Source: Hydrogenophaga pseudoflava
GTDB lineage: Bacteria; Pseudomonadota; Gammaproteobacteria; Burkholderiales; Burkholderiaceae_C
Direction of reading: 5' to 3'
Length of the DNA: 64,000 nucleotides
Assembly: GCF_031020795.1 (NCBI RefSeq)
Contig: NZ_JAVHJP010000002.1
Coordinates: forward strand, 558,001-622,000
A model generated the notes under the pieces. That model saw nothing but the letters and a program-made list of their open reading frames with translations, was not told the origin of the DNA and ran no database searches. Shown one piece after another: positions 1,083-45,153 of this stretch; within the stretch, counting starts at the first letter, position 1, and each line of letters starts with the position of its first letter. Both the position numbers and the translations under genes were made by a program.

Positions 1083-1096
1083 GGCATGGCGTTTGC
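1083..1096 (+). promoter_or_regulatory. Predicted sigma-54 promoter for 1144 gene
   Basis: GGCATGGCGTTTGC fits the -24/-12 rule GG-N10-GC. The predicted start of transcription is near 1108, giving a 36-base leader before ATG 1144. It lies in the short gap after the metallopeptidase stop. Confidence 0.7.
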
Positions 1097-1143
1097 CGCG
1101 CACCGGGCTCCTTTCACTTCTACCTTTTTTCAGGAGCAACACC

Positions 1144-1692
1144 ATGGCCACCCCTTCCCGCGTAATGACCGGCTTGTTTCCCGACCGCGACAGCGCCGAG
1201 CGCGCCTACCAGGGCGTGCTGGACCGCGGCTACAGCCGCGACGACGTGAACCTCCTCATGTCCGACGAGACGCGCCGGCGCCAGTTCGGCAGCGACGCCA
1301 GTGGTGCCACCGGCACTGGCACGGGCACTGGCATTGAAACCGGTACCAAGGCCGCCGAAGGCGCCGGCATCGGCGCGGGCATTGGCGGCACCGTGGGCGC
1401 CATCGCCGCCGCTGTGGCGGCCGTGGGCACCAGCCTGGCGGTACCCGGACTGGGGCTGGTGGTGGCCGGACCGGTGGCGGCGGCGCTGGCCGGTGCCGGC
1501 GCGGGTGGCGCGGCCGGCGGTCTGATCGGTGCCATGGTCGGCTGGGGCATCCCGGAGGAGCGCGTCAAGCGCTACGAAAGTGGCCTGCGCGAGGGCGGCA
1601 TCGTCATGGGCGTGAACCCGCGCAACGACGAGGACGCCGACTACCTGGCCCGCCACTGGCAGGACAACCGCGGCACCGACATCTTCCGGTGA
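1144..1692 (+). CDS. Glycine-zipper membrane-associated stress protein
   Basis: The 182-residue protein starts at ATG 1144, preceded by AGGAG at 1132-1136. Residues 1-45 (TGLFPDRDSAERAYQGVLDR) resemble the N-terminal domain of the general stress protein 17M group, which is found in many stress-induced proteins of unknown role. The middle is a Thr-Gly run followed by a long Gly/Ala-rich hydrophobic stretch (about residues 70-130) that looks like a glycine-zipper membrane hairpin. The C-terminal part is soluble. A hemerythrin gene follows after 7 bases, so the two are probably co-transcribed from the sigma-54-type promoter at 1083. Function is not known; a membrane role under stress is inference. 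Confidence 0.85.
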   Translation: MATPSRVMTGLFPDRDSAERAYQGVLDRGYSRDDVNLLMSDETRRRQFGSDASGATGTGTGTGIETGTKAAEGAGIGAGIGGTVGAIAAAVAAVGTSLAVPGLGLVVAGPVAAALAGAGAGGAAGGLIGAMVGWGIPEERVKRYESGLREGGIVMGVNPRNDEDADYLARHWQDNRGTDIFR

Positions 1693-1699
1693 GCCCAGC

Positions 1700-2263
1700 A
1701 TGAACGCCACCAGTTCCGTTGCCGCGGCCGTCACCCCGGACCCGACCGAAGCCGTGACCCTGCTGGTCAACCAGCACCGCCGGCTGGAAGCCCTGCTGTC
1801 CCTGGTGGTGGAGGAGGCTGCCCCGCCCGAACGCACGCGGCGACTGCTCAAGGCCGCCGACGAGCTGGCCGTGCACATCGCTGCCGAGGAGATGCTGTTC
1901 TATCCGGCGGTGCGCGCCGAACGCACCGAGGACATCCTGCTCGAATCGCTGGAGGAACACCTCTCGCTCAAGCGCCTGCTGGCCGACCTGCTGGCGCTCG
2001 ACCCCGTGGACTGCACCTTCACCCCCAAGTGCAAGGTGCTGCTGGAACAGACCGAACACCACCACGAGGAGGAAGAGGACCACCTGTTTCCCAAGGTGAT
2101 GCTGTTGCTCGGTCCGGAAAAACGCGCAGAACTGGGGCGGCAGATGCTCCAGCAGCAGACCGACCTGATGCGCGCGGGCGAACCGCGCGAGTGGGCGGCC
2201 GAGCAGACCGAGGCCGCGCAGGCGCTGGACGAGGAGCCGACGCCGCGCACCGAACACCCCTAG
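1700..2263 (+). CDS. Hemerythrin HHE domain protein
   Basis: The 187-residue, mostly helical protein has the spacing of His and acidic residues expected of a four-helix HHE cation-binding bundle: VNQHRRLEALL near residue 28, HIAAEEMLFYP near 57, EEHLSLKRLL near 77 and HHHEEEEDHLFP near 117. Such domains bind a di-iron centre and bind oxygen or sense oxygen, NO or iron; which applies here cannot be told. It lies 7 bases after the glycine-zipper gene and 9 bases before an AsmA-like gene, so it is the middle gene of a three-gene operon. A second hemerythrin is at 7014-7604. Confidence 0.88.
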   Translation: MNATSSVAAAVTPDPTEAVTLLVNQHRRLEALLSLVVEEAAPPERTRRLLKAADELAVHIAAEEMLFYPAVRAERTEDILLESLEEHLSLKRLLADLLALDPVDCTFTPKCKVLLEQTEHHHEEEEDHLFPKVMLLLGPEKRAELGRQMLQQQTDLMRAGEPREWAAEQTEAAQALDEEPTPRTEHP

Positions 2264-2272
2264 CGCCGTCCC

Positions 2273-4372
2273 ATGAGCACCGCCCCGGCCGGCACCCACC
2301 CACCGCAGCCGCCCCGGCGGCCGGCGCTGCGCAGGGTCTGGCTGGGTCTGGGGGCCTTCGTGGTGCTGCTGGTGCTGGGGCTGGTCTGGGGCGAAGCCAC
2401 GGGCTGGTCCGCATTGCGCGGACCGCTGCAGCGCCAGATCGAAAAGGTGGCCCGCGTGCCGGTGCAGCTGGAGGGGCGCTTCCATCTGCGCATGCTGGGG
2501 GCGCCGCGGCTGGAGGTGGGGCGCATCAAAGTCGGGGCCGCGCAGGAGGTGCCGGCGCCCCACCTGCTGCAGGCCGAGGCTGCGCGGCTGGACTGGCGCT
2601 GGGGTGATCTGTGGCGCTGGTGGGCCCGGGACCAGCCACTGCGCGTGCAGGCCCTGACCGCGCAGACCCTGGACTTGCAGCTGCTGCGCCTGGCCGACGG
2701 ACGCGCCAGCTGGGCCCTGGGTCGGGGCGGCGACGGCGAGTCGGCGGCGGGAGAACCCGCCCCCCGGCCCCAGTTCGGACGCCTGCAGGTGGACGCGGGG
2801 CATGTGCGCCTGGACGATGCGCCGCTGCAGACGCAGCTGGACATCAGGCTGTCAGGCGGCGAGGGCGACGGGCGCGGCGCCCCGGCCGACAGCCCCGCCC
2901 CCGGCGGGTACCGGGCCGACATCACCGGCCGCTGGCAGCGCCTGCCGCTGGCGCTGGCGGTGCGCATGCAGGGCGCCTTGCTGCTGCTGGACGACGACAC
3001 CGCCGAACCGGTGCAACTGCGGGTGGAAGGCCGGGCGGGGGCCGCGCAACTGCTGTTCGACGGCCAGGCCGCCAGCCTGCTGAGTGCGCGCCGGCTCGAC
3101 GGCGCCCTGCGTTTCTCCGGGCCCTCGCTGGCAGCGGTGGGACAGCCCCTGGGGGTCACGCTGCCGCGCACGCCGGCCTTCCAGCTGCAGGGCCGGCTGG
3201 CGCACGACGACGGCGTCTGGGGCCTGCGCGCGGACAGCGCGGTGATCGGCCAGAGCGAGCTGGGTGGCGAATTCCGCTTCGACACCCGTGCGCAGCCGCG
3301 CCGCCTGAGCGGCCGGCTCACCGGCCGGCGCCTGCTGCTGGCCGACCTCGGTCCCGCGGTGGGCACCCGGGGTGAAGGGCGCGGCAGCACCGCCGAGCCG
3401 GCGCCCGCGCCGGAGCCCGGCCGCGTGCTGCCCCAGCGCCGCTTCGACCTGCCGTCGCTGCGCGTGATGGACGCCGACGTGGAGGTGGCCATCGAATCGC
3501 TGGACCTGGGCAGCCGGTCGCTGGCCCCGCTGCGCGCCGTGCGCAGCCGCGTGTTGCTGCAGGGGGGCGTGCTGCAGCTGCAGAACCTGCAGGCCGGTGT
3601 GGCCGGGGGGCAGGTGGCCGGCAGCACCACGCTGGACGGGCGCGGCGAGCCCGCCCGCTGGGAGCTGGCGCTGCGGGTGAGCGGCCTGGACATGGCCGGC
3701 TGGGTGCGCGCATTCAGGGCGCCCGGCGCGGCGCCACCACCGGGCGACGGTGCCGCGCTGCGGCGCGAGCGGCGCAACACCCGCGCGCGCGGCCAGCAGG
3801 ACGGCCCCCAGCCAGTGCAGTCCTACCTCACCGGGGTGCTGGGCGGCCAGTTCAACCTGCGCGGCCAGGGCCGGTCCACCGCGCAGATCCTGGGCAGTCT
3901 GCAGGGCAGCGCCGCGCTGCAGCTGAAGGAGGGCACGATCTCGCACCTCGTCACCGAAGCGGCCGGGGTCGACCTGGCGCAGGCCCTGGGCGTGCTGGTG
4001 CGCGGCGATGCGCCGCTGGCCCTGCGCTGCGCCCGGGTCGACATGGTGGTGCGCGAGGGCGTGGCGGTGGTGCAGCGCGGGGTGCTGGACAACTCCGACA
4101 GCACCCTGCGCCTGGACGGCCAGGTGGATCTGCGCAACGAGGCCCTGGCGCTGCGCGCGCGCGTCCGGCCCAAGGATTTTTCGCTGTTCGCGGTGCGGGC
4201 GCCGGTGCTGGTGACCGGCTCGCTGGGGCGCCCGCAGGTGGGTCTGGACGGCCGGGCGCTGAGCAAGCGTGCGGCCGCCGCCGCGGCGCTGGCCGTGATC
4301 GCCGCGCCGGTGGCGGCGCTGCTGCCCTTCGTGGACCCGGGGGATGACCCCGAAGGCGATCCCTGTGGCTGA
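2273..4372 (+). CDS. AsmA family membrane-anchored protein
   Basis: This 699-residue protein has one N-terminal membrane segment (about residues 20-42, LGAFVVLLVLGL) after a Pro-rich cytoplasmic tail. The remainder is a long periplasmic beta-rich region of AsmA type ending in a typical AsmA C-terminal domain (GGQFNLRGQGRSTAQILGSL near residue 523, then LRLDGQVDLRNEAL). AsmA-like proteins resemble bridge-type lipid transfer proteins and affect outer-membrane lipid homeostasis. The last 40 residues include an Ala-rich hydrophobic stretch. ATG 2273 lies 9 bases past the hemerythrin stop, so it is probably the third gene of that operon. The link between a hemerythrin and an AsmA protein is unusual and unexplained. 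Confidence 0.85.
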   Translation: MSTAPAGTHPPQPPRRPALRRVWLGLGAFVVLLVLGLVWGEATGWSALRGPLQRQIEKVARVPVQLEGRFHLRMLGAPRLEVGRIKVGAAQEVPAPHLLQAEAARLDWRWGDLWRWWARDQPLRVQALTAQTLDLQLLRLADGRASWALGRGGDGESAAGEPAPRPQFGRLQVDAGHVRLDDAPLQTQLDIRLSGGEGDGRGAPADSPAPGGYRADITGRWQRLPLALAVRMQGALLLLDDDTAEPVQLRVEGRAGAAQLLFDGQAASLLSARRLDGALRFSGPSLAAVGQPLGVTLPRTPAFQLQGRLAHDDGVWGLRADSAVIGQSELGGEFRFDTRAQPRRLSGRLTGRRLLLADLGPAVGTRGEGRGSTAEPAPAPEPGRVLPQRRFDLPSLRVMDADVEVAIESLDLGSRSLAPLRAVRSRVLLQGGVLQLQNLQAGVAGGQVAGSTTLDGRGEPARWELALRVSGLDMAGWVRAFRAPGAAPPPGDGAALRRERRNTRARGQQDGPQPVQSYLTGVLGGQFNLRGQGRSTAQILGSLQGSAALQLKEGTISHLVTEAAGVDLAQALGVLVRGDAPLALRCARVDMVVREGVAVVQRGVLDNSDSTLRLDGQVDLRNEALALRARVRPKDFSLFAVRAPVLVTGSLGRPQVGLDGRALSKRAAAAAALAVIAAPVAALLPFVDPGDDPEGDPCG

Positions 4373-4400
4373 GTGCCATGCCTGAGCGGGCCCGCCAGCG

Positions 4401-4414
4401 GGCGCGGCGCTTGC
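4401..4414 (+). promoter_or_regulatory. Predicted sigma-54 promoter for katE
   Basis: GGCGCGGCGCTTGC obeys GG-N10-GC with a good TTGC -12 element; the -24 element deviates (GGCGCG for GGCACG). Predicted transcription start is near 4426, 82 bases before ATG 4508. Confidence 0.55.
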
Positions 4415-4507
4415 CAACGGGTGTGTCCGCGCTATCGGCGCGGTGCGGGCACCTCCGGGTGTCCGTGTCCCGTCACCCCACCGCATTTCCCACACAGGAG
4501 CATGTCC

Positions 4508-6949
<2,442 letters not shown>

Positions 6950-6969
6950 GCCGGCGCGTCAGACAGGAA

Positions 6970-6997
6970 GAAAGGGCCCCGGGGCCCTTTCTTTTTT
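6970..6997 (+). terminator. Rho-independent terminator after katE
   Basis: A perfect 11-bp stem, GAAAGGGCCCC (6970-6980) with GGGGCCCTTTC (6981-6991), is followed by six T residues. It lies between the convergent catalase and hemerythrin genes and may also act weakly on the minus strand. Confidence 0.9.
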
Positions 6998-7013
6998 GCG
7001 CTGGCGGCGGTGT

Positions 7014-7604
7014 TCAGGCCGGGCGCTGCGACGACGAGCCCTTGCGCGTGCCACCGCCGTCTGGCGCGCCGTCCTCCATCGCATCGGGGGGCGGCTCCAG
7101 CTGCTCGCGCCGGGCCAGCATTTGCTCGGACAGGGTCGCCCAGTCCAGGCGCAGCTTTTCGAGTTTGGGGAACAGCTCCTTTTCTTCTTCCTTGATGTGG
7201 TGCTCCACGTATTCGCACAGCACCGTGAAGCGGGCGCTGAATTTTTCGTCGCCGACCTCCATCTGGTCGAGCTGCTCGATCAGCGCCTTGGCCGACTCGT
7301 GCTCCACCTCGGCCTCGTCGATCAGCTTGGGCTCGGCCTCGCGGGCCGCGGGGTAGAGGAACTCTTCCTCCAGCGTGGTGTGCACCTGCAGGTCGGCCAG
7401 CACCTGCCGCACGATGGCGTCGCAGCGCTCGGTGTCCTCGAGCGGGTCGAGCTTGGTGAACTCCTTGTAGGCCTTCTTCACGTTGCGGTGGTCTTTTTTG
7501 AGCATGTCCAGCACTTCGTCGCGCGACGCGCTGGACGAGGTGCTGTGTGTGGTGGAACGGTGGCTCGCGGAACTGGTCGATTCCGAGGATCGGCTCGTGG
7601 GCAT
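7014..7604 (-). CDS. Hemerythrin HHE domain protein, second copy
   Basis: This 196-residue protein has a Ser-rich N-terminal tail (about 25 residues, SSESTSSASHRSTTHSTS) and then a hemerythrin domain with KKDHRNVKKAYKEF, VHTTLEEEFLYPAA, EVEHESAKALIEQL and EYVEHHIKEEEKELFPKL, which together supply the His and Glu ligands for a di-iron site. The start at 7604 is preceded by AGGAGA on the minus strand. The C-terminal 35 residues are polar and disordered-looking. A sigma-54-type promoter lies 63 bases upstream. A role in oxygen, NO or iron handling is family knowledge; its partner is not visible. It shares the domain, but not the tail, with the protein at 1700. Confidence 0.9.
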   Translation of the reverse strand: MPTSRSSESTSSASHRSTTHSTSSSASRDEVLDMLKKDHRNVKKAYKEFTKLDPLEDTERCDAIVRQVLADLQVHTTLEEEFLYPAAREAEPKLIDEAEVEHESAKALIEQLDQMEVGDEKFSARFTVLCEYVEHHIKEEEKELFPKLEKLRLDWATLSEQMLARREQLEPPPDAMEDGAPDGGGTRKGSSSQRPA

Positions 7605-7993
7605 GGTGGGTCTCCTGTGGGGGGTGTGGGGAATGCGCCGGCCGGCTGGCCGGTTTCCGAACGGCGGCAAACGCCGTGCCGTGGGCCTCCCCGCCGGCCT
7701 CGCAACATCTCCGTCGCGGTGGACACCGCGGCAAGGATTGCGGCAAAAACTACCGGATCCCCCCGCCCGACAGCGGGGGCATGGGCGGCGGCGGGTCCCG
7801 AAGAGGCCGCAGCGGTCTGCCGCGCGCACGGCCCCGTGCCGCAGCCTCATTGGGGCAAGCGGCGCACCCTGGCGCAATGTGTTTCAAGACGTTGCCCGCA
7901 GCCGTCCGCGGCATGGTCGTTGCGTCGTGCGTGGAGGGAGGGCCATCCGCACGGTTGGTCCGGCATTCGTTACCGAACTTGAGGAGACCCGAC
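7605..7993. other. Divergent intergenic region, hemerythrin to rpoN
   Basis: These 389 bases hold the hemerythrin promoter (7667-7680, minus strand). I see no convincing gene and no sigma-70 or sigma-54 promoter for rpoN; the stretch 7690-7990 is G+C-rich. The only ribosome-binding site is GAGGAG at 7981-7986. Confidence 0.5.
7667..7680 (-). promoter_or_regulatory. Predicted sigma-54 promoter for 7604 hemerythrin
   Basis: On the minus strand the sequence is GGCACGGCGTTTGC, an excellent -24/-12 match. Predicted transcription start is near 7655, giving a leader of 51 bases. Confidence 0.75.
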
Positions 7994-9460
7994 TTGCTGT
8001 CCATGGACTTTCGTGCCGATCACCGGCAGACCCAGACCCTCTCCCCCCGACTCCAGCACGCCGTGCGCCTGCTCCAGCTCTCCTCGCTGGACTTTTCGGC
8101 CATGGTGCGCGACCTGATGGGCCGCAACCCCTTTCTGGAAGACGGCGAGGGGGAGAACGACGACAACGGCGACGCGCTGCCCGAGACGGCCGCGGCCGCG
8201 GCGGACGAGCGCCTGCCCGACCAGCTCGAAGCCCCCGCCGCCGAGCTGGTGGCACCTCCCGAGGACGAGACCTACCAGGGCGAGAACGACCGCGACCTGT
8301 GGCAGGCCGACGCCAGCGCCTCGCTGCGCCGCGGCGACGACGGCGACCTCTCGGCGCTGGACCTGATGGCGGCCGACACCACGCTGGCCAGCCACCTGCA
8401 CGGCCAGATCAACCTGCTGGTGCTGCCCGAACGCGAGATGGTGCTGGCGAAGGCGGTCATCGACTCTTTGGACGAGGACGGTTACCTGCGCACCCCGCTG
8501 GAGGAACTGGTGGAACTGCTGCCGCTGCAGCCGCCGGCCACGCTGGCCGACATGGAGCAGGCACTGGCGGTGGTCCAGTCGCTCGACCCGGCCGGTGTGG
8601 GCGCGCGCGACGTGGGGGAGTGCCTGCGCCTGCAGCTGCCGGAGCTGAGCTGCCCTGTATCGCGCGAGCTGGCGCAGCGCATCGTGGGGCAGCACCTGCT
8701 CCAGCTGGCCGCGCGCGACGTGCAGGGCCTGGCCCAGCGCCTGGGCGAGTCGGTGGGGCTGGTGGAGCAGGTGTGTGACCGCATCCGCCGGCTGGACCCC
8801 CGGCCCGGCTGGCGCTTCGGTTCCTCGCGGGTGGACTACGTGGTGCCCGACGTGATCGTGCGGCGCGTGCACAACCAGTGGAAGGTACAGCTCAATCCCG
8901 CCGTGGTGCCCAAGGTGAGGCTCAACCAGGTGTACGCCGAGCTCTTCAAACGGCACCGCTCGCCGCAGAACACCGAGATGGCCGACCAGCTGCAGGAAGC
9001 GCGCTGGACGCTGCGCAACGTGGAGCAGCGCTTCTCCACCATCCTGGACGTGGCGGAGGCCATCATGCGGCGCCAGGTGCACTTCTTCGAGTACGGCCCC
9101 ATGGCCATGAAGCCGCTGGGTCTGAAGGAAATCGCCGAGGAGGTGGGCATCCACGAGTCCACCGTCTCGCGCGTGACCAACAACAAGTACATGGCCACGC
9201 CCATCGGCGTGTTCGAACTCAAGTACTTCTTCTCGCGCGCCATGGTCAGCGCCAATGGCAGCGCCTGCTCCGGCACCGCCATCCGCGGCCTGGTCAAGGA
9301 CATCATCGAGGCGGAACGCCCCGAGGCCCCGCTGTCGGACGCCGAGATCACGCGCCAGCTTGCGCGACAGGGCCTGGTGGTGGCGCGCCGCACGGTCACC
9401 AAGTACCGCCAGATGCTGCGCCTGGAGTCGGTCGATCGGCGCCGCCGCTACGCCGCCTGA
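7994..9460 (+). CDS. rpoN: RNA polymerase sigma-54 factor, RpoN type
   Basis: The 488-residue factor has all three regions of sigma-54: a Gln/Leu-rich activator-interacting N-terminus (LQHAVRLLQLSSLDF), an acidic linker with many Asp and Glu (about residues 45-100), the core-binding domain, a helix-turn-helix (EVGIHESTVSRVTNNKYM) and the RpoN box ARRTVTKYRQML near the C-terminus, which reads the -24 element. TTG 7994 fits the GAGGAG site at 7981-7986 by spacing; ATG 8003 is the alternative and removes three residues. The gene stands alone, without the lptB, hpf and ptsN neighbours that usually accompany the housekeeping rpoN, and is surrounded by sigma-54-type promoters. I infer it is a second, dedicated paralogue; a genome-wide count would settle this. 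Confidence 0.95.
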   Translation: MLSMDFRADHRQTQTLSPRLQHAVRLLQLSSLDFSAMVRDLMGRNPFLEDGEGENDDNGDALPETAAAAADERLPDQLEAPAAELVAPPEDETYQGENDRDLWQADASASLRRGDDGDLSALDLMAADTTLASHLHGQINLLVLPEREMVLAKAVIDSLDEDGYLRTPLEELVELLPLQPPATLADMEQALAVVQSLDPAGVGARDVGECLRLQLPELSCPVSRELAQRIVGQHLLQLAARDVQGLAQRLGESVGLVEQVCDRIRRLDPRPGWRFGSSRVDYVVPDVIVRRVHNQWKVQLNPAVVPKVRLNQVYAELFKRHRSPQNTEMADQLQEARWTLRNVEQRFSTILDVAEAIMRRQVHFFEYGPMAMKPLGLKEIAEEVGIHESTVSRVTNNKYMATPIGVFELKYFFSRAMVSANGSACSGTAIRGLVKDIIEAERPEAPLSDAEITRQLARQGLVVARRTVTKYRQMLRLESVDRRRRYAA

Positions 9461-37493: not shown

Positions 37494-37510
37494 CCTTTTG
37501 CCGGCCCACA

Positions 37511-37939: not shown

Positions 37940-37953
37940 GCAATCTGCATTCC
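37940..37953 (-). promoter_or_regulatory. Weak predicted sigma-54 promoter for BON gene
   Basis: GGAATGCAGATTGC on the minus strand keeps GG-N10-GC and TTGC, but the -24 element is poor. Predicted start near 37928, 24-base leader. Confidence 0.42.
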
Positions 37954-37973
37954 CGCGACGTTCCCTGCGTTGA

Positions 37974-37987
37974 GGTCTGCCGATTGC
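37974..37987 (+). promoter_or_regulatory. Weak predicted sigma-54 promoter for 38020 gene
   Basis: GGTCTGCCGATTGC keeps GG-N10-GC and TTGC, with a poor -24 element. Predicted start near 37999, 21-base leader. Confidence 0.42.
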
Positions 37988-38019
37988 CCGGCCGCCCCGT
38001 CCCGGACCCGCGAACCGCC

Positions 38020-38454
38020 ATGCACCGAGTGCCTGCTCCACCACCACCGTCGCCACCGAAAGGCCGCGCGCTGCGGGTGCTGATCTCCGACGATCACGTG
38101 GACGGCGCCGACACACTCGCCTTGCTGGTGAACCTGGAGGGCCACGAGGTGGAAGTGGCGCACGACGGCAAAGAGGCGCTGCGCATCGCGGACCACCTGC
38201 ACCCCGATGTGGCGATCCTGGACATCGGCATGCCCGGCCTGAACGGGCACGAGGTGGCCAGCCGTCTGCGCCAGACCGGGGAGGGTGCGTCCATGCTCAT
38301 CCTGGCGCTGACCGGGCGCGACGAAGTCGAGGACAAGCAGCGCGCCCGCGTGTCGGGCTTCGACGAGCACTTCACCAAGCCGGTGGACCCGGCCACCCTG
38401 CTGGGGCGCATCGCGGCCTGGCAGCGGGGCGGGCGCGGACCCCGTCGGGCCTGA
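38020..38454 (+). CDS. Single-domain response regulator
   Basis: The 144-residue protein is a receiver domain without an output domain: VLISDDHVDGAD near residue 21, AILDIGMPGLNGHE with the phospho-acceptor Asp, ALTGRDE and FTKPVDP. The first 18 residues are Pro-rich. Such proteins carry phosphate in relays or bind partners directly. Its closest likeness within the window is to the C-terminal receivers of the hybrid kinases at 41905 and 45207 (shared DIGMP and HHLIKP-type patterns). Kinase unknown; it may receive phosphate from one of these. Confidence 0.88.
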   Translation: MHRVPAPPPPSPPKGRALRVLISDDHVDGADTLALLVNLEGHEVEVAHDGKEALRIADHLHPDVAILDIGMPGLNGHEVASRLRQTGEGASMLILALTGRDEVEDKQRARVSGFDEHFTKPVDPATLLGRIAAWQRGGRGPRRA

Positions 38455-38587
38455 CCCATCGCCGTGGCCCGCGGGTCCGGTGGTCAATGTTGCGGCACTT
38501 TTGACGGAAACGGCCGCGGCCTTGCCGGCCCCCCCCGCGGGGCCGCAGTCTCTTCGCTGTAGGTCTGCGCGGTGTGACTCCGGGTCG

Positions 38588-38601
38588 GGTACATGCCTTG
38601 C
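38588..38601 (+). promoter_or_regulatory. Predicted sigma-54 promoter for 38676 gene
   Basis: GGTACATGCCTTGC, with GGTAC in place of GGCAC. Predicted start near 38613, 63 bases before ATG 38676. Confidence 0.58.
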
Positions 38602-38675
38602 CATCGCTCCTCACGACGTCTGTTCATTGCCGAATGTCCGGCCCTGGCGGCGTTGTTCTTATCAAGGAGCTACCC

Positions 38676-39035
38676 ATGACCTCAATCGTTCACTCTGTCT
38701 CCGTGGCCACCCTGGCCGGCCTGGCACTGGCCGCGAGCGCGGCCTTCGCCCAGACCACCACGCCGGGAACAGGCGGCGCCTCCGGCGCGAGCCAGCAGCC
38801 CATCGTGCCCGGCTCAGGCAACCCAGCCCCTGGCGCCACGACCACTACCCCCGGCACCTCCGGAACGACCGGGACCACCGGAACGACGGGAACCACAGGC
38901 ACTACGGGAACCACAGGCGCCACGGGTGGCACCACCGGCACAACAGGCGGCACCACCGGAGGCACCACGGGCACCACGTCGACCGACACGAACATGTCGG
39001 GCACCGAGCGCGCCGCGCGGGCGGACCGCAACTGA
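38676..39035 (+). CDS. Secreted Gly-Thr repeat protein
   Basis: The 119-residue protein has a signal peptide (VATLAGLALAASAAFAQ, cleavage near residue 26). The mature part includes about 15 consecutive GTT-like tripeptides (residues about 60-100), encoded by degenerate GGN-ACN-ACN codons. This resembles Gly-X-Y periodicity, but without Pro, so it is not a collagen helix. The Pro/Gly-rich region before it is also disordered. AAGGAGC precedes ATG 38676. Function unknown. Confidence 0.75.
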   Translation: MTSIVHSVSVATLAGLALAASAAFAQTTTPGTGGASGASQQPIVPGSGNPAPGATTTTPGTSGTTGTTGTTGTTGTTGTTGATGGTTGTTGGTTGGTTGTTSTDTNMSGTERAARADRN

Positions 39036-39066
39036 GCGGCCGTTGCCGCACCGCCTGACCAGAGAA

Positions 39067-39092
39067 AGCCGCCCCTCTTCGGGGTGGCGGCT
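39067..39092. terminator. Hairpin between convergent genes
   Basis: An imperfect stem (AGCCGCC with GGCGGCT plus two further pairs) closes around CTCTTC. It lies between 38676 and the L,D-transpeptidase gene. No T tract. Confidence 0.5.
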
Positions 39093-39099
39093 CCCCGCT

Positions 39100-39741
39100 T
39101 CAGAAAAGCGATTGCACCGGGCGGGTTTCCGGCAGCACGTAGATCCAGCCACGACCGCTGGAGAACAGGGGCCGGACCACCGCGTCGTAGAACGCCGGCG
39201 GCAGGTTGATGCAGCCGTAGGAGATGCGGTTGTCGTCGGGTGTCTCCGACGCCATGCGCTCGGGCCGGCGCTCCACGGGGTTGGAACGGCGCATCCGGTG
39301 CAGGGACACCGCAGCGTCGTAGTCCACCCAGAAGATGTCCTCTCCCTGGTGGTTGCGCCCCGGTTCCAGCCGGAACCGGCCGGCCGGCGTGGTGCGTTCG
39401 TGGGGACGGATCGCGCCGATGGGACGGGCGCCGATGCCCGGCACCGAATCGTCCCCCCTGGCGGCGCCCAGCAGCACCGGCGAGGAGTCCACGGGGCGCG
39501 CCTGCTCGTCGAACACCCAGATCCGCGCAGCGACCTTGTCGAGCACCACGAAGGGGCCGTGACCGCCGATGCCCCGCGCCTGGATGGCCCGCACCACCTC
39601 CTGGGTGGGCCCGGACGGCGGCACCGCCTGGGCGGTCGCGCCGCAGATCAGCGAGGGCAGGGCGAGGGAGGCGGCCGCCAGACGCGAGAGAACGGAGGGA
39701 AACATGGGCAAATGCTGCGGACGAAAGAGGGACAAGGGCAT
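39100..39741 (-). CDS. L,D-transpeptidase (YkuD domain)
   Basis: The 213-residue protein has a signal peptide (about residues 15-38, LSRLAAASLALPSLICGATA) and a YkuD catalytic domain ending in ISYGCINLP, where the Cys is the nucleophile, with the His in SLHRMRRSNP. Family members make 3-3 cross-links in peptidoglycan or attach lipoprotein in the periplasm. The start at 39741 is chosen because GGAG precedes it at a suitable distance and because the sigma-54-type promoter would start 24 bases before it; ATG 39705 is the alternative. Confidence 0.85.
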   Translation of the reverse strand: MPLSLFRPQHLPMFPSVLSRLAAASLALPSLICGATAQAVPPSGPTQEVVRAIQARGIGGHGPFVVLDKVAARIWVFDEQARPVDSSPVLLGAARGDDSVPGIGARPIGAIRPHERTTPAGRFRLEPGRNHQGEDIFWVDYDAAVSLHRMRRSNPVERRPERMASETPDDNRISYGCINLPPAFYDAVVRPLFSSGRGWIYVLPETRPVQSLF

Positions 39742-39776
39742 GGGGCTCCGGTGCGGCTTCGACGCCCCCGCAGATG

Positions 39777-39790
39777 GCAAGGGACGTGCC
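39777..39790 (-). promoter_or_regulatory. Predicted sigma-54 promoter for L,D-transpeptidase
   Basis: GGCACGTCCCTTGC on the minus strand; predicted start near 39765. Back-to-back with 39811 across a 20-base spacer. Confidence 0.73.
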
Positions 39791-39810
39791 CGGCCGGGTG
39801 CGCCGGGGAT

Positions 39811-39824
39811 GGCACGCGGTGTGC
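39811..39824 (+). promoter_or_regulatory. Predicted sigma-54 promoter for 39874 gene
   Basis: Preceded by T it reads TGGCACG at -24, a perfect match, but the -12 is TGTGC instead of TTGC. Predicted start near 39836; 38-base leader. Confidence 0.62.
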
Positions 39825-39873
39825 CACGGGGATTGTCCATCGAATCCCCGGATTCCTCAGCAAGGAGCACGAC

Positions 39874-40782
39874 ATGGCACCACGCACCAGCACATCGACA
39901 GGCGACGAACCCGTCCAGACCAGCGACCGCATACAGCCCGGACGCATGCCCGCCCAGCACCTCGAACCCGGCGAGCAGGAGGCCGACCTGGAACTTCAGC
40001 CCCGCTTCAAGGCGCCCGACTACCTGGGCAGCCAGAAACTGAAGGGGCGCATTGCCCTGATCTCCGGCGGCGATTCGGGCATCGGACGCGCGGTCGCGGT
40101 GATCTTCGCGCGCGAGGGCGCGGACGTGGCCATCATCTACCACTCCTCGGACGAAGACGCCGAAGAGACCCGCCGCCACGTGGAGGAAGAGGGCACACGC
40201 TGCCTGCTGCTGCGCGGCGATGTGAGAGACCGGGAATGGTGCAAGCAGGCGGTGGAGCGCACGGTGCAGACCCTGGGCGGACTGGACATCCTGGTCAACA
40301 ACGCCGGCTACCACAAGCACGTCGACTCGATCATGGACATCGACGACGAGCGCCTGTGCGAAACCTGGGAGATCAACATGGGTGGCTACTTCCGCCTGAC
40401 GCAGGCCGCGCTGCCGCATCTCAAGCGCGGCTCCAGCATCGTCAACACGGGCTCGGTGACCGGTCTGCGCGGCAGCGCCGATCTGCTCGACTACGCCTCC
40501 ACCAAAGGCGCCATCCACGCCTTCACCAAGTCGCTGGCCAGCAACCTGCTCGAGCGCGGCATCCGCGTCAACGCTGTCGCACCCGGGCCGGTGTGGACGC
40601 CGCTCAACCCCTCCGACATCCCGGCGCAAGAGGTGGCGGAGTTCGGGCGCGACGCCGACATGAAGCGGCCGGCGCAGCCCGAAGAACTGTCGCCCGCCTA
40701 CGTGTTCCTGGCCGCGCCTTCATGTTCCAGCTACATCACCGGCATCGTGCTGCCGGTGACCGGCAGCGTGGGGTCCATCTGA
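39874..40782 (+). CDS. SDR oxidoreductase, GSP39/YhdF-like
   Basis: The 302-residue enzyme has an extended polar N-terminus of about 50 residues, then ISGGDSGIGRAVAVIFAREG (NAD(P) site), LVNNAGYHKHVDS, and the catalytic Tyr-Lys in LLDYASTKGAIHAFTKS. The long N-terminus and the C-terminal GIVLPVTGSVGSI are typical of the general-stress group of SDRs (Bacillus YhdF/YdaD, E. coli YghA). Substrate unknown; aldehyde or quinone reduction is family conjecture. AAGGAG lies before ATG 39874. DUF421 follows 33 bases later. Confidence 0.9.
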   Translation: MAPRTSTSTGDEPVQTSDRIQPGRMPAQHLEPGEQEADLELQPRFKAPDYLGSQKLKGRIALISGGDSGIGRAVAVIFAREGADVAIIYHSSDEDAEETRRHVEEEGTRCLLLRGDVRDREWCKQAVERTVQTLGGLDILVNNAGYHKHVDSIMDIDDERLCETWEINMGGYFRLTQAALPHLKRGSSIVNTGSVTGLRGSADLLDYASTKGAIHAFTKSLASNLLERGIRVNAVAPGPVWTPLNPSDIPAQEVAEFGRDADMKRPAQPEELSPAYVFLAAPSCSSYITGIVLPVTGSVGSI

Positions 40783-40815
40783 GGCGGCCGGTCCGGCCCG
40801 CGTGAGGAACCCGCG

Positions 40816-41313
40816 ATGTTCGACCTCTCGGTGCCATGGTGGGAGCTGCCCCTGAGGGTGGCCATCATCTACGGGGTGCTGCTGGTGCTGGTCCGGGTGT
40901 CCGGCAAGCGCACGGTCGGCCAGTTCACCCCCTTCGATCTGCTCGTGGTGATGCTGCTCAGCGAGGCCGTGTCCTCCGGGCTGTCCGGCGGTGACGAGTC
41001 GGTCACCGGGGCCTTGCTGGCCGCGGCGAGCCTGATCGGCATCAACGTGCTGATCGCCATGCTGACCGCCCGCAGCCGGGCGCTGCAGACGCTGGTCGAA
41101 GGCGATCCGGTGTGCATCGGGCGCGATGGCCGGATCTTCGAGGACAAGCTGAAGGAGAACCACGTGCCCAGAATGGACGTGGAGTGCGCACTGCGCCAGG
41201 CCGACTGCGATCTGAAGGACCTGAAGTACGCCTTCCTGGAGGCCGACGGCGGCATCAGTGTGCTCAAGGAATCTTCCGGTGCCGTGAAAGAGCAGGAGGA
41301 GCGCGGTGGGTGA
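40816..41313 (+). CDS. DUF421 (YetF-like) membrane protein
   Basis: The 165-residue protein has three hydrophobic helices at the N-terminus (VAIIYGVLLVLVRVSGKR, FDLLVVMLLSEAV, LLAAASLIGINVLIAML) and a cytoplasmic C-terminal domain with GDPVCIGRDGRIFEDKLKEN, characteristic of DUF421/YetF. Members are spore or stress-related membrane proteins; function not known. It follows the SDR by 33 bases and overlaps the cysteine hydrolase gene by 8 bases, so the three form an operon behind the sigma-54-type promoter at 39811. Confidence 0.9.
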   Translation: MFDLSVPWWELPLRVAIIYGVLLVLVRVSGKRTVGQFTPFDLLVVMLLSEAVSSGLSGGDESVTGALLAAASLIGINVLIAMLTARSRALQTLVEGDPVCIGRDGRIFEDKLKENHVPRMDVECALRQADCDLKDLKYAFLEADGGISVLKESSGAVKEQEERGG

Positions 41314-41878
41314 CCCCGGGTTGCCGCAGCATCGGCGCGCGCTGCTGCTGATCGACTTCATCAACCCGCTGGATTTCCCGGAGGCCGGGCAGCTCGCGGC
41401 GAGCGCGGTGGAGGCGGCGCGCAGCACCCGCGAAATGGCCCGCGCGGCGCGTGCGCAGGGCATTCCGGTGATCTATGCGAACGACAACTTCGGCCGCTGG
41501 CGCTCCGACTTCCCCACGCTGGTGAACCAGCTGCGCCGCGGGTCGGGCCCCAGCGCGACCCTCGCTCGCCTGCTGCGGCCGCACCACGACGACCTGACCC
41601 TGCTCAAGCCCATGCATTCGGCGTTCTTCGGCACGCCGCTGGAGATCCTGCTCGAGCAGATCGGCGTGCGCGCCCTGGTGATGGCCGGTCTGGCGGCCGA
41701 CATCTGCGTGCAGCTGTCGGCCGCCGATGCCTTTCTGCGGGGGTTCCGGGTGCACGTGCCGGAGGACTGCACCGCGGCCGAAACCGCCGGCAAGAAAGCC
41801 GCCGCACTGACCTACATGCGCGACATCCTCAAGTGCGACACCCGCCCCTGGCAGCGCCTGCGCTGGCTCGCTTCATGA
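41306..41878 (+). CDS. Isochorismatase-like cysteine hydrolase
   Basis: The 190-residue enzyme has ALLLIDFINPLDF (catalytic Asp), TLLKPMHSAFFGT (catalytic Lys) and GLAADICVQLSAAD (nucleophilic Cys), the triad of isochorismatase/nicotinamidase-like hydrolases. Substrate cannot be assigned; relatives act on nicotinamide, N-carbamoyl amides or isochorismate. The GTG start at 41306 overlaps DUF421 by 8 bases. It closes the operon 39874-41878. Confidence 0.88.
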   Translation: MGDPGLPQHRRALLLIDFINPLDFPEAGQLAASAVEAARSTREMARAARAQGIPVIYANDNFGRWRSDFPTLVNQLRRGSGPSATLARLLRPHHDDLTLLKPMHSAFFGTPLEILLEQIGVRALVMAGLAADICVQLSAADAFLRGFRVHVPEDCTAAETAGKKAAALTYMRDILKCDTRPWQRLRWLAS

Positions 41879-41904
41879 CGGCCGGTCCCGGGGGCGCCGC
41901 GTGA

Positions 41905-43791
41905 TCAGCGCAGCTCGCCTGGCCTGGATGCCGCAAATTCTTCAAACGACTCCACCAGGCTGCGCTCCAGCTCCCGCGGCTGCACCGGCTTGACCAGGTG
42001 GTGGTCGAAGCCGGCGAGCGACGCCGCCTCCTTGTCACTGGCCTGGCCCCAGCCCGAAATGGCCACCAGGTGAATGTGCTCGGTGGTCCGGGAGCGCCGC
42101 AGCCGGCGGGCCACTTCGTAGCCATCGCACTTGGGCATGCCGATGTCCAGCAGGGCGATGTCGGGCAGGGTGTCGACCGCGCAGCGGATCGCCGCTTCCC
42201 CGTCGTGCACCACCTGCACCAGGTGACCCCTGGCGCGCAGGATTTCGGCAAATCCTTCCGCCAGGTCGACGTTGTCGTCCGCGATCAGGATGCGGAGTTG
42301 CCGGATGGGCCGCTCGTCGGCGGCATCGGTCCCGACGTGGTCGGTGTCCTGCGCCTGGAGGCGGGGGAGCCGCACCATGAAGCTCGACCCCTTGCCGGGC
42401 CCGTCGCTCGTCATGGTGACCAGGCCTTCGTGCAGTTCCACGATCTGGCGCGACAGGGTGAGGCCCACGCCCAGGCCCACGTTGCCGCGTTCAAGCGACT
42501 TGTCGGCCTGCTCGAACAGATCGAAGATGCGCGTCTGCATCTCTGGCGCCACGCCGATGCCCGTGTCCTGCACCGTCACCAGCACCGAAGCACCGTCGTT
42601 CTTCACGGTCACATCCACCTGTCCGCCCGGCGGGGTGTAGCGGCAGGCGTTGTTCAGCAGGTTGGAGAACACCTGGGTCAGCCGGACGGCGTCCCCATGC
42701 ACATAAGGCGTTTCATCGGCCGGGTGCAGGTTCATGCCCACGTCCTGCTTTTCCGCCATGGACTGCACGCCTTCGACGGCCGTGGCCACCAGATCGTTCA
42801 TGTCCACCAGCTGGCGGTCCAGCGAGAGCTTGCCCGTGGCCACGCGCGACGCATCGAGCAGGTCGTTGATGAGACGCACCATGTGCTTGAGCTGGCGGTC
42901 CAGGATCACCACCGCCTTGGCGCGCGTTTCTGCCGGGGTCTTGTCCATCTGCAGCAGCGCGACCGCGCTGGTCATGGGCGCCAGCGGGTTGCGCAGCTCG
43001 TGGGCGAGGGTGGCCAGGAATACGTCCTTCAGATGGTCGGCCTTGCGCAGCTCCTGTTCGACACGCCGCCGCGACTCCACCTCCTTTTCGATCTCGGACG
43101 TGCGCGTCTGGCACTCGGACAGCAGGCTGTTGAAGGCCGCCACCAGCAAGGCCACATCGCGGTAATCGGTGTCGGGCGCCCGCAGCGCCCAGTTGTGGCT
43201 GGACGTCACCTCCTGCGCCACCTGGGTCATCTTCTCCAGCGGTGCGGAAATGCGGCGCTGAAGGCTGCCGAAGAAATAGAACGCGACCGCCAGGCTGAGG
43301 CTGCCCAGCGCGATCAGGATGCCGGCAAACACCAGCATGCGCGTCCAGATGTCGTGCCGGGCCGACAGGTGCAGCGTGCCCAGGTACTCGCCGTCCCGCT
43401 CGATCGGGTAAGCGAGTTCCAGTATCGAGCCGCGAAAAGTGGTTTCCAGCTCGTTGTGGATCGCCACGCGGTGCACATCGACCACCGCCCCGGGCCCGCC
43501 GTAGGTCGCGAACAGCCCGCCGTTGGCGTCGTACATGGCCGCCCACTCGATGCGCGGCTGCGATTTCAGCAGGGCCAGATTGGCATGCGCCGCTTTCGCG
43601 TCATCGAACTCCAGCGCCGCCACAGAGGCCTCTGCGAGCAGGGCGGCCTGCGTGCGCAGATCGGCGACCCAGGCCTTGCGGTTCGACCCGAGTTCATGGA
43701 AGAACAGTGCCGCTGCGCTGAGCAGCATCGCGACCGCCGTCGTCTGCATGGCGGCGCGCACCAGCTGCTCGCGCAAGGAGGTCGGTCTCAC
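41905..43791 (-). CDS. Hybrid sensor histidine kinase with receiver
   Basis: The 628-residue protein has an N-terminal helix (ATAVAMLLSAAALFFHEL), a periplasmic sensor of about 110 residues, a second helix (MLVFAGILIALGSLSLAVAF), a HAMP domain, the phosphorylation helix FLATLAHELRNPLAPMT, an ATPase domain (LTQVFSNLLNNACRYTP, DTGIGV) and a receiver (LIADDNVDLAEG, ALLDIGMPKCDGYE, HHLVKPVQP). GTG 43791 overlaps the upstream YfiR-like gene as GTGA, so the two are coupled. YfiR-like partners often control such membrane enzymes from the periplasm. Confidence 0.92.
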   Translation of the reverse strand: MRPTSLREQLVRAAMQTTAVAMLLSAAALFFHELGSNRKAWVADLRTQAALLAEASVAALEFDDAKAAHANLALLKSQPRIEWAAMYDANGGLFATYGGPGAVVDVHRVAIHNELETTFRGSILELAYPIERDGEYLGTLHLSARHDIWTRMLVFAGILIALGSLSLAVAFYFFGSLQRRISAPLEKMTQVAQEVTSSHNWALRAPDTDYRDVALLVAAFNSLLSECQTRTSEIEKEVESRRRVEQELRKADHLKDVFLATLAHELRNPLAPMTSAVALLQMDKTPAETRAKAVVILDRQLKHMVRLINDLLDASRVATGKLSLDRQLVDMNDLVATAVEGVQSMAEKQDVGMNLHPADETPYVHGDAVRLTQVFSNLLNNACRYTPPGGQVDVTVKNDGASVLVTVQDTGIGVAPEMQTRIFDLFEQADKSLERGNVGLGVGLTLSRQIVELHEGLVTMTSDGPGKGSSFMVRLPRLQAQDTDHVGTDAADERPIRQLRILIADDNVDLAEGFAEILRARGHLVQVVHDGEAAIRCAVDTLPDIALLDIGMPKCDGYEVARRLRRSRTTEHIHLVAISGWGQASDKEAASLAGFDHHLVKPVQPRELERSLVESFEEFAASRPGELR

Positions 43792-44486
43792 TTGGGCCTT
43801 TCCACCACGCGGTCGGCGACCACGAGCAGGCGCGAACTGAGTTTGACCCCCGCCACGTCGGCGGCAGGCAGCGATGCTTCAATGCGCACCCCTTCTTCGG
43901 CCAGCGTGAAGCCGATGGTCGCGCCCTGGTCCACGCCGCCAAGGGCGTCGGTGGTGAGCACCGGTGGCCGCTCGCGGGAAGCCGCCTTGGCGTGCGCACG
44001 CACCGCCCAGGCCGCGGCGCTGACGTGAAGCAGGTGCAGGTTCGTCGAAGCGCCCTCGCTGGCAACGAGCTGGCGGACCTCGATCGTGCGCCCATGCACG
44101 GGGCGGCCCGAGACCGCGCGGCTCAGGGCTTCGAACATGTCCTGGGAGCCCATCACCCCCACCACGATCGACGCGGCCGGGTCCGCAAACGCAATGCCTG
44201 GCCACTCGATGTAGCCGATGATCTTGTGCAGATAGTTGGCCAACACCTTGTCTGCACTGGGCAAGCCCGTGGCAGAAAGGTCGCGGCGGGGCCACAGGGT
44301 CAACATTGCGAGGCTGGAGAACAGGACCGACCGCCGGGTCGGTCCGCCCCAGCGGTCCTTCTTGAGGGGCGCTGAGGCCGCATGCGGGTCGGAATCCCCG
44401 CCAGGGCCATGTTGTCGAGTGGATGTCGCGGTCAATGGCCCTCCCAAAAAAAGCGCATTGTGCGCCGGAGTCAAGGCTCCGTTCAA
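43788..44486 (-). CDS. YfiR-like (DUF4154) periplasmic protein
   Basis: The protein (up to 232 residues) carries the YfiR domain: KVLANYLHKIIGYIEWPG, VVGVMGSQDMFEALSRAV, NLHLLHVSAAAWA and GATIGFTLAEEGVRIEASLP. A twin-Arg-like hydrophobic segment (RRSVLFSSLAMLTLW, near residue 50) suggests export. YfiR proteins repress a partner membrane enzyme from the periplasm; here the likely partner is the kinase encoded immediately downstream. The start is uncertain: TTG 44486 gives the longest frame, but has no ribosome-binding site. Confidence 0.8.
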   Translation of the reverse strand: MNGALTPAHNALFLGGPLTATSTRQHGPGGDSDPHAASAPLKKDRWGGPTRRSVLFSSLAMLTLWPRRDLSATGLPSADKVLANYLHKIIGYIEWPGIAFADPAASIVVGVMGSQDMFEALSRAVSGRPVHGRTIEVRQLVASEGASTNLHLLHVSAAAWAVRAHAKAASRERPPVLTTDALGGVDQGATIGFTLAEEGVRIEASLPAADVAGVKLSSRLLVVADRVVERPK

Positions 44487-44539
44487 GCACCACTGTCATG
44501 TCTCGCAATGGCGGCGGACGGCGTCACCACGCGAGGGAT

Positions 44540-45079
44540 TCAGCGCTTGTCGTCGGTGCCGCGCGCCGGGTCGACCGAACCCTTGAGTGCCTGTGCGATG
44601 CGCAGGTGCTCGCGCAGCATCGGCAGGTGTTTGGTGGCGAAGGCCTTCACCTCCGGGTCCCGCGCCTGGCGCGAGGCCTCTTCAAACAGACGGATCGTGC
44701 TTTCATGCGCCTCCACACCCATCTGGCTGATGAAGCGCCGGTCGAAGTCGTTGTCTCCGAGGTTGGCGATGAGCAGTTCCTTGCCCTTCTGCAGCATCGA
44801 AGGCTCCTTCGGCGGTGTGTACTCCTTGGAAGCGGCGAGGGCCTGCAGCTCGGCGCCCATGCCTGCGTGGTCGTCGATGAGGCGCTGCGCATAGTCGCGC
44901 ACCCGCGGGTCACGGGCCTTGGTCTGGGCCAGGCGACTGGCCGACTGTTCGGCCAGGCCGTTCTGTGCCGCCTGCTCCAGGAACTCCTGATCGCCTTCGG
45001 CCAGCTTGTCGGCAAAGGCGGTGCCACTGAACACCAGGGCCAGCGCCAGGGCGGCGCATCTGAGGATCTGAGCTTTCAC
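44540..45079 (-). CDS. DUF4142 periplasmic protein
   Basis: The 179-residue protein has a signal peptide (CAALALALVFSGTAFA) and a mature four-helix DUF4142 domain, ferritin-like in shape: FLEQAAQNGLAEQSASRLA, VRDYAQRLIDDHAGMGAEL, EAHESTIRLFEEAS, and KHLPMLREHLRIAQAL. Members are periplasmic, and some affect stress survival; no metal site is established. GTG 45079 is preceded by AAGGAG at a suitable distance. A sigma-54-type promoter lies 61 bases upstream, so this gene belongs to the regulon though it sits among the kinases. Confidence 0.88.
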   Translation of the reverse strand: MKAQILRCAALALALVFSGTAFADKLAEGDQEFLEQAAQNGLAEQSASRLAQTKARDPRVRDYAQRLIDDHAGMGAELQALAASKEYTPPKEPSMLQKGKELLIANLGDNDFDRRFISQMGVEAHESTIRLFEEASRQARDPEVKAFATKHLPMLREHLRIAQALKGSVDPARGTDDKR

Positions 45080-45139
45080 GGGAACACTCCTTGAATCGTT
45101 GGAACAGAGGGATTGCCCTCAGAGGGCGCACGACAGGTG

Positions 45140-45153
45140 GCAAACCACATGCC
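45140..45153 (-). promoter_or_regulatory. Predicted sigma-54 promoter for DUF4142 gene
   Basis: GGCATGTGGTTTGC on the minus strand; predicted start near 45128, a 49-base leader. Confidence 0.7.

What the first reader, a model, noticed from the sequence alone, without database searches (positions are those of the whole stretch)
1083..45153. A sigma-54 stress regulon with its own rpoN and activator
By eye I found 25 intergenic -24/-12 motifs, each in the right orientation 13-94 bases before a start codon. Eighteen read GGCA-N6-TTGC exactly. At about 67% G+C my rough expectation is two to three such exact matches on both strands of the whole window. They precede catalase, hemerythrin, topoisomerase IB, GlsB, AI-2E-type, Crp/Fnr, DUF883, MscS, heptose, BON, L,D-transpeptidase, DUF4142 and other genes. 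rpoN-type and sigma-54 response regulator genes lie in the middle (7994-12266). Sigma-54 control of general stress genes is unusual, since that role normally belongs to RpoS or ECF factors. Motif counts are seen; regulon membership is inference.
Basis: partly seen in the sequence, partly recalled or inferred. Interest (0 to 1): 0.93.

Follow-up and report, generated by a model that had tools for sequence, protein, structure and literature searches.

The report
Stress island with its own sigma-54
A 58-kilobase stretch beside a tRNA gene, missing from a same-genus genome and so likely a genomic island, carries a second sigma-54 gene, the gene of a likely partner activator and 22 promoter-like sites of a distinct type, and is predicted to switch on a set of stress and cell-envelope genes as one unit, largely apart from the cell's housekeeping sigma-54.

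Summary
GGCA-N6-TTGC occurs 21 times in the window against 4.1 expected (0 of 100 shuffles reach it); 19 of 21 are promoter-like. The cluster fills about 58 kb next to tRNA-Asn; a same-genus genome has nothing there.

The island sites differ from like sites in the rest of the genome: C at -11 in 19 of 22 against 8 of 35, T at -26 in 0 of 22 against 22 of 35. In 24 related loci C at -11 holds for 53 of 58 sites, but for 2 of 21 sites before rpoN2 itself. RpoN2 has an altered RpoN box. The linked activator co-occurs with it: both in 25 of 150 genomes, one alone in 3.

Best reading: a portable sigma-54 subsystem (RpoN2, dedicated activator, C-type promoters), its rpoN2 promoter likely read by housekeeping RpoN1. 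Stress function rests on gene content and a published katE precedent. No transcript data; signal, enhancers and kinase unknown. RpoS is absent here but present in 17 of 26 RpoN2 genomes, so this is no general RpoS replacement.

The parts
1..48511 (.). In-window part of the likely genomic island (whole island about C12:548,244-606,511, i.e. it begins about 9.76 kb left of the window)
   Evidence: Empty site in same-genus genome G101; tRNA border; degenerate repeat at the left edge
48512..48587 (-). tRNA-Asn(GTT), right border of the island
   Evidence: ARAGORN, Rfam; same tRNA at the empty site in G101
8003..9460 (+). rpoN2, second sigma-54, RpoN box ARRTVTKYRQ
   Evidence: Pfam AID, CBD, DBD; NF009118 529 bits against cut-off 396; box and tree
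10710..12266 (+). Sigma-54 activator: receiver, AAA+ with GSFTGA, Fis-type HTH
   Evidence: Pfam, loop, co-occurrence with RpoN2
7910..7923 (+). Site before rpoN2, G at -11, not of island type (6.1 bits on the island matrix)
   Evidence: relatives
1083..1096 (+). C-type site before 1144-1692, hemerythrin, AsmA, catalase
4401..4414 (+). One-mismatch C-type site 93 bp before the long catalase gene 4508-6949
   Evidence: 15.2 bits; Pfam catalase
7667..7680 (-). C-type site before hemerythrin 7014-7604
10525..10538 (-). C-type site before 9535-10464 (no family)
12284..12297 (+). Site (T at -11) before topoisomerase IB 12366-13502
13471..13484 (+). C-type site at the 3' end of the topoisomerase ORF, before GlsB/Transgly_assoc 13521-13790
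16579..16592 (-). C-type site before 16202-16567
17159..17172 (-). C-type site before 16617-17093
18903..18916 (-). C-type site before 18664-18864
19748..19761 (+). C-type site before 19811-20095
21149..21162 (+). C-type site before 21218-21529
21534..21547 (+). C-type site before 21586-21903 (weak DUF883-like, below cut-off)
27022..27035 (-). C-type site before the SDR 26275-27009 and the heptosyltransferase, carbamoyltransferase, cytidylyltransferase, SIS genes behind it
27056..27069 (+). Site (T at -11) before MscS 27081-27911
30767..30780 (+). C-type site before glycosyltransferase operon starting 30815
36760..36773 (-). C-type site before PfkB kinase 35716-36660
36790..36803 (+). C-type site before OMP barrel 36870-37493
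39777..39790 (-). C-type site before 39100-39705 (no family)
45140..45153 (-). C-type site before DUF4142 protein 44540-45079
13818..16079 (-). Hybrid histidine kinase, candidate kinase of the activator (untested)
   Evidence: Pfam
41905..43776 (-). CHASE8 hybrid histidine kinase, candidate kinase (untested)
   Evidence: Pfam
45207..46718 (-). Hybrid histidine kinase next to a KaiC-like protein (46751-48265), candidate kinase (untested)
   Evidence: Pfam

Best explanation
This is a likely genomic island of about 58 kb that carries a second sigma-54 (RpoN2), a linked response-regulator activator and 22 exact -24/-12 promoter-like sites, and it would work as a self-contained regulon in which RpoN2 and that activator read a distinct promoter type with C at -11. 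Shown by sequence: the border at the tRNA and the empty site in one same-genus genome, the site cluster, the C at -11 and the missing T at -26, the altered RpoN box, and the co-inheritance of RpoN2 and activator. Inferred: rpoN2's own site, which has G or A at -11 in 18 of 21 related cases, is read by housekeeping RpoN1 with another activator, so that RpoN1 sits above RpoN2; RpoN2 polymerase then waits on the C-type promoters as closed complexes; a kinase, possibly one of three hybrid kinases in the island, phosphorylates the activator, whose GSFTGA loop opens the complexes. The changed RpoN box would relax the need for T at -26, and sigma factor and loop together would read -11. The output, judged by gene content, is stress protection (catalase, hemerythrins, topoisomerase IB, GlsB type, MscS, DUF4142) and envelope glycan building.
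For: Site excess and intergenic confinement. Promoter type: C at -11 19/22 island vs 8/35 elsewhere, p 3e-6; T at -26 0/22 vs 22/35, p 5e-7; in 24 related loci C in 53/58, against 2/21 before rpoN2, p 9e-12, and 3/16 in 56 contrast loci. rpoN2's own site scores 6.1 bits where 21 island sites score 13.1-22.4 left out one by one. RpoN box ARRTVTKYRQ with T in 20/20 and Q in 19/20 RpoN2 rows, against A and E in 18/19 contrast rows; RpoN2 clade 100/100. Activator in 25 of 26 RpoN2 genomes and in 2 of 124 others, p 5e-25; 23 of the 25 have both on one contig. GSFTGA in the window and 12 of 13 related activators; the loop touches -11/-12 DNA and the RpoN box reads -24 (PMC7175178, passages). Island. 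Precedents: -11 separates two RpoN in Cereibacter (PMC11999139, passage); rpoN2 mutant loses katE transcription in a Burkholderia (PMC4745423, passages).
Against: No expression or binding data. No enhancer motif found. Two of the 22 island sites have T at -11, one (rpoN2's) has G. Loss of T at -26 may be partly composition: T is rare in a 71% G+C island. A Burkholderia plasmid RpoN with the same box and a GSFTGA activator has mixed bases at -11 near it (2 C, 3 T, 1 G of 6 intergenic sites) and groups with the canonical side of the tree, long branch. Clusters near rpoN2 were strong in 3 of 5 other genomes looked at, weak in G049 and not significant within 45 kb in G116. RpoN2 is positively, not negatively, associated with RpoS (17/26 vs 46/124). 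No tRNA-Asn near rpoN2 in the 24 related stretches and no integrase seen. G046 has two RpoN2 and no activator hit.
Confidence: 0.68

Rival explanations
1. Housekeeping RpoN1, with the island activator, reads the island promoters, and RpoN2 is redundant or drives only a few genes.
For: Both sigma factors share the GG/GC core; 8 of 35 sites elsewhere in the genome also have C at -11; in Ralstonia an rpoN2 mutant showed no growth or virulence phenotype (PMC4676750, passages).
Against: Promoter type differs between island and rest and tracks RpoN2 loci; the RpoN box differs; the activator is found almost only with RpoN2.
Confidence: 0.13
2. The regulon is real, but its task is envelope and surface-glycan remodelling (or dormancy), not a general stress response.
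For: Heptosyltransferases, glycosyltransferases, carbamoyltransferase, OMP, AsmA and PfkB genes take up much of the island.
Against: Catalase, two hemerythrins, topoisomerase IB, MscS, GlsB type, CBS and DUF4142 genes; katE precedent.
Confidence: 0.12
3. The C at -11 and missing T at -26 are by-products of the island's high G+C, not of a different reader.
For: Island G+C 71.0% against 63.1% and 67.0% in the flanks; T is rare there anyway.
Against: C at -11 is 86-91% where composition gives about a third; sites before rpoN2 in the same kind of DNA have C in 2 of 21; the neighbouring columns show no such bias.
Confidence: 0.05
4. The motif is the binding site of an ordinary transcription factor and not a promoter.
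For: No transcript starts are known.
Against: It is not a palindrome, it has the sigma-54 core and spacing, all 18 intergenic window sites face a gene start, and it lies round a sigma-54 gene in related loci.
Confidence: 0.02

Closest known systems
RpoN paralogues with cognate activators in Cereibacter (Rhodobacter) sphaeroides
   Same: Several RpoN, each with its own activator; the -11 base helps keep RpoN1 and RpoN2 apart (PMC11999139, passages).
   Different: There for nif, flagella and an Xre repressor; not an island with its own promoter set, and not stress genes.
RpoNp of Bradyrhizobium sp. DOA9
   Same: Second RpoN with a distinct site logo (TGG to CGG before -24) and a proposed stress role (PMC13207237, passages).
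   Different: Plasmid copy, 22 scattered predicted sites that may belong to either RpoN, second change lies before -12 GC and not at -11.
RpoN2 of Burkholderia pseudomallei
   Same: rpoN2 mutant loses katE transcription; a potential RpoN box precedes katE (PMC4745423, passages).
   Different: Only katE studied; no activator, island or promoter type reported in the passages seen. Sequence not compared here.
RpoN paralogues of Ralstonia solanacearum and Aquincola tertiaricarbonis
   Same: Beta-proteobacteria with two and four rpoN genes (PMC4676750; PMC9850573; passages).
   Different: No phenotype found for Ralstonia rpoN2; the Aquincola work concerns RpoN1 and flocs.
RpoS or EcfG general stress regulons
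   Same: Similar kinds of target genes (recalled).
   Different: Sigma-70-family factors without an ATP-driven activator (recalled).

Membership tests
Sigma-54 (RpoN) | Activator-interacting, core-binding and DNA-binding domains | tested here: met
   PF00309, PF04963, PF04552 over their cut-offs
Sigma-54 (RpoN) | RpoN box ARRTVAKYRE | tested here: inconclusive
   Variant ARRTVTKYRQ, shared by the clade
NF009118 sigma-54 subfamily | Score over NCBIfam cut-off 396 | tested here: met
   529 bits
Bacterial enhancer-binding protein | AAA+ sigma-54 interaction domain with GAFTGA loop | tested here: met
   PF00158 234.5 bits; loop variant GSFTGA
NtrC or PrsR activator | Score over NCBIfam cut-off | tested here: not met
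   TIGR01818 387 against 558.6; TIGR02915 352 against 502.6
tRNA-borne genomic island | Adjoins a tRNA 3' end; absent from a close relative | tested here: met
   one relative only
tRNA-borne genomic island | Direct repeat of the tRNA end at the far edge | tested here: inconclusive
   Degenerate repeat L185:10249-10270 / window 48518-48540; 0 of 816 control windows under three scorings, 6 of 1636 under a laxer one
tRNA-borne genomic island | Integrase gene | tested here: not met
   None among the island genes scanned with Pfam (not every called gene was scanned)
Orthogonal sigma-54 regulon | Own promoter type | tested here: met
   (sequence only)
Orthogonal sigma-54 regulon | Transcription needs this sigma and not the other | not testable with these tools
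   needs mutants and transcripts
General stress regulon | Induced by stress, needed for survival | not testable with these tools
   gene content only

The most novel reading that the evidence does not exclude
A horizontally delivered, orthogonal sigma-54 operating system: an island brings its own sigma-54, its own activator and some two dozen promoters written in a private -26/-11 code that the host's sigma-54 reads poorly, while one non-private promoter hands the island's sigma factor to the host's sigma-54, giving a sigma-54-to-sigma-54 cascade for stress survival.
Probability: 0.5. Interest if true: 0.9.

Novelty: new variant of a known kind. Interest (0 to 1): 0.8.

Why it matters
Bacterial stress regulons are normally run by sigma-70-family factors (RpoS, ECF; recalled). 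A portable sigma-54 regulon that needs an ATP-driven activator would be a different logic for the same task: silent until signalled. The natural contrast between sites before rpoN2 (2 of 21 with C at -11) and their neighbours (53 of 58) makes the question of how sigma-54 paralogues stay apart testable by single base changes. It also suggests a function for a large group of proteins now named only sigma-54 factor: 2,125 database clusters score E 1e-120 or better among the 8,000 candidates scored, a level that the canonical RpoN would not reach (my inference).

Tried and rejected
Whole-genome counts of C-type sites as a marker of RpoN2: rejected, coding hits swamp them (61 in the own genome, 62 in RpoN2-less G101; VGGCAYG-N4-TTGCC 24 against 15). 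RpoS replacement: rejected; the own genome has no RpoS over cut-off, but RpoN2 and RpoS are positively associated over 150 genomes (17 of 26 against 46 of 124, p 0.009). Enhancer motif: dyads and k-mers in 75 upstream regions gave only strings that look to me like coding sequence or overlapping divergent promoters. NtrC or PrsR identity of the activator: below cut-offs. Shared tRNA site in relatives: no tRNA-Asn in 24 related stretches. Burkholderia low-oxygen locus as the same thing: a term search of PMC6127331 found 0 RpoN, 0 promoter and 2 'sigma'; dropped. Novelty in print: searches, open-licence PMC only, listed nothing on this island, its promoter type or its activator; subscription papers are not held.

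Limits: genes were called with my own codon-usage script, not a standard gene finder. One same-genus genome was compared. The named loci are the best 80 of 578; 24 are the RpoN2 clade, 56 served as contrast, one of which (L042, Variovorax) turned out RpoN2-like. Truncated gene calls lost 5 of 24 RpoN2 from the alignment (20 rows include the window); the contrast rows are RpoN1 plus 18 of 56 loci, chosen by length and by RR[ST]V-x-KYR. One search scored only the ten best candidates per genome. G009, with a partial RpoN2 (86% over 177 residues), was left out of the 26. The five genomes for the cluster test were picked for few contigs or seen in a listing; G086's site list may be incomplete. VanZ-like, LptB-like, aat and similar names not covered by a Pfam row are recalled or by eye.
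Full report
What is there. The window holds 21 exact GGCA-N6-TTGC sites against 4.14 expected in shuffles, 0 of 100 reaching 21. With genes called by a self-trained codon script, 18 of 21 are intergenic and face a gene start 11-99 bp away; 13471 overlaps the end of the preceding gene and was put in by hand, which makes 19 promoter-like; 44185 and 45012 lie inside genes. A matrix from 21 island sites gives 27 hits of 13 bits or more in 84 kb: 25 intergenic, 13471, and one inside a gene outside the island, although only 11% of the bases are intergenic; reversed controls give 0 and 1. A one-mismatch site lies 93 bp before the long catalase gene (4401).

Borders. Genome-wide there are 129 hits of GGCAY-N5-TTGC, and 24 lie in one stretch of about 58 kb, which begins some 10 kb left of the window. 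On the right it stops at tRNA-Asn(GTT), 48512-48587. In the same-genus genome G101 the fpr gene, the tRNA-Asn and, within 100 bases, a gene that by eye is a relative of the left-hand border gene (L185:9880-10236) follow each other, then aat; the flanking genes match at 56-97%, one at 24%. At the left edge in the own genome lies a degenerate copy of the tRNA's 3' part in the same orientation (L185:10249-10270 against window 48518-48540): 0 of 816 control windows score as well under three scorings, 6 of 1636 under a laxer one. No integrase was seen. The block is most likely an old tRNA-borne island. G101 has a single sigma-54 match, at the canonical level, and no activator match.

Two sigma-54 genes. 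The genome has two. The canonical one lies on another contig, behind the end of an ABC ATPase gene (my reading). The island copy has all three sigma-54 domains and fits NF009118. In a tree of 41 rows it falls in a clade of 22 with support 100/100. Its RpoN box reads ARRTVTKYRQ: over 20 RpoN2 rows T is fixed and Q is 19 of 20, while 18 of 19 contrast rows have ARRTVAKYRE, the exception being a Variovorax protein that the tree puts with RpoN2. Against a one-to-one link, the RpoN of a Burkholderia pyrrocinia plasmid has the RpoN2 box but branches, on a long branch, with the canonical side. The RpoN box reads the -24 element (PMC7175178, passage).

A distinct promoter type. Of the 129 hits, 57 are promoter-like by my rule: 22 in the island, 35 elsewhere; 72 are in genes or have no gene behind them. 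C at -11: 19 of 22 against 8 of 35; T at -26: 0 of 22 against 22 of 35. In 24 named loci with RpoN2 relatives 101 hits split into 58 promoter-like, 21 before rpoN2 (in 19 loci) and 22 dropped: C at -11 in 53 of 58, 2 of 21 and 11 of 22. In 56 contrast loci 16 promoter-like hits have C in 3 and T at -26 in 4. The site before rpoN2 in the window scores 6.1 bits on the island matrix; the 21 island sites score 13.1-22.4 with each left out in turn. The missing T at -26 may be partly composition; C at -11 is not easily so.

A dedicated activator. The gene at 10710 encodes receiver, AAA+ and Fis-type HTH domains, with GSFTGA for GAFTGA; 12 of 13 related activators have the same loop. That loop contacts sigma-54 and the -11/-12 DNA (PMC7175178, passage), the very place of the promoter change. 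Over 150 family genomes RpoN2 (50% identity or more) is in 26 and the activator in 27: both in 25, RpoN2 alone in 1, activator alone in 2, neither in 122; 23 of the 25 have both on one contig, the nearest pairs at most about 46 kb apart. G071 and G106 have two RpoN2 genes and two activators, each pair a few kb apart. The activator gene has no intergenic island-type site of 9 bits or more before it.

Clusters elsewhere. VGGCAYG-N4-TTGCC within 45 kb of rpoN2: G141 12 of 31, G086 8 of 35, G124 5 of 27, G049 2 of 16, G116 1 of 23, with 0.3-0.5 expected each; G101, without RpoN2, has at most 3 in any 90 kb. Strong clustering is thus seen in three of five.

What it may do. Genes with island-type sites or behind such genes: hemerythrins, AsmA, long catalase, topoisomerase IB, GlsB type, MscS, SDR, heptosyl- and glycosyltransferases, OMP, DUF4142. 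Related loci have relatives of the hemerythrin, catalase, BON, CBS, Zn-dehydrogenase and DUF2383 proteins near rpoN2, a changing subset in each. In a Burkholderia an rpoN2 mutant lost katE transcription (PMC4745423, passages). RpoS is not found over cut-off here, but 17 of 26 RpoN2 genomes have it, so RpoN2 is no general substitute.

Mechanism. Most likely RpoN1, with an activator not identified, opens the rpoN2 promoter; RpoN2 then occupies the C-type promoters; the island's activator, on phosphorylation, opens them. The first step rests only on the base at -11 and on the Cereibacter literature (PMC11999139, passage). Signal, enhancer sites and kinase are unknown; no enhancer motif was found.

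Verdict. A sigma-54 regulon with its own rpoN and activator is well supported as anatomy; 'stress' and 'read by RpoN2' remain inference. Sigma-54 paralogues told apart at -11 are known; an island that packs sigma factor, activator and some two dozen promoters of one distinct type did not appear in the papers I could search.

Noticed in passing
window 28048-30723 (+): One ORF of 891 residues reads as an ABC exporter (MsbA-like, below cut-off) followed by a weak histidine-kinase ATPase and a receiver domain; relatives of 929 residues at 58-59% identity lie near rpoN2 in two Rhizobacter loci (L020, L022). A transporter fused to two-component parts.
   Followed up: partly
L009:14703-14780 and L016:17436-17513: A 25-residue hydrophobic peptide (MGKYFLAWLLGVP...) with an upstream GGCA-N6-TTGC site occurs in two RpoN2 loci.
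   Followed up: no
L020 and L022, 55-190 bp before rpoN2: Rhizobacter rpoN2 has two sites in tandem, one with A and one with C at -11, perhaps a switch between the two sigma factors.
   Followed up: no
L120:1201 (C19:369797 of the own genome): A C-type site far outside the island, before a 75-residue Q- and N-rich protein whose start resembles by eye that of the island protein 9535-10464; a possible satellite of the regulon. L091 and L114 are other candidates.
   Followed up: partly
L191 (Burkholderia pyrrocinia plasmid pBPJTT): An RpoN with the box ARRTVTKYRQ and a GSFTGA activator 10 kb away sit among CBS, PRC-barrel, DUF1328, DUF3008 and trehalose genes, with six intergenic GGCA-N6-TTGC sites in 25 kb; bases at -11 are mixed.
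   Followed up: partly
   Followed up: no
window 46751-48265 (-): A double KaiC-like ATPase with a hybrid kinase behind it forms the tRNA-side end of the island.
   Followed up: no
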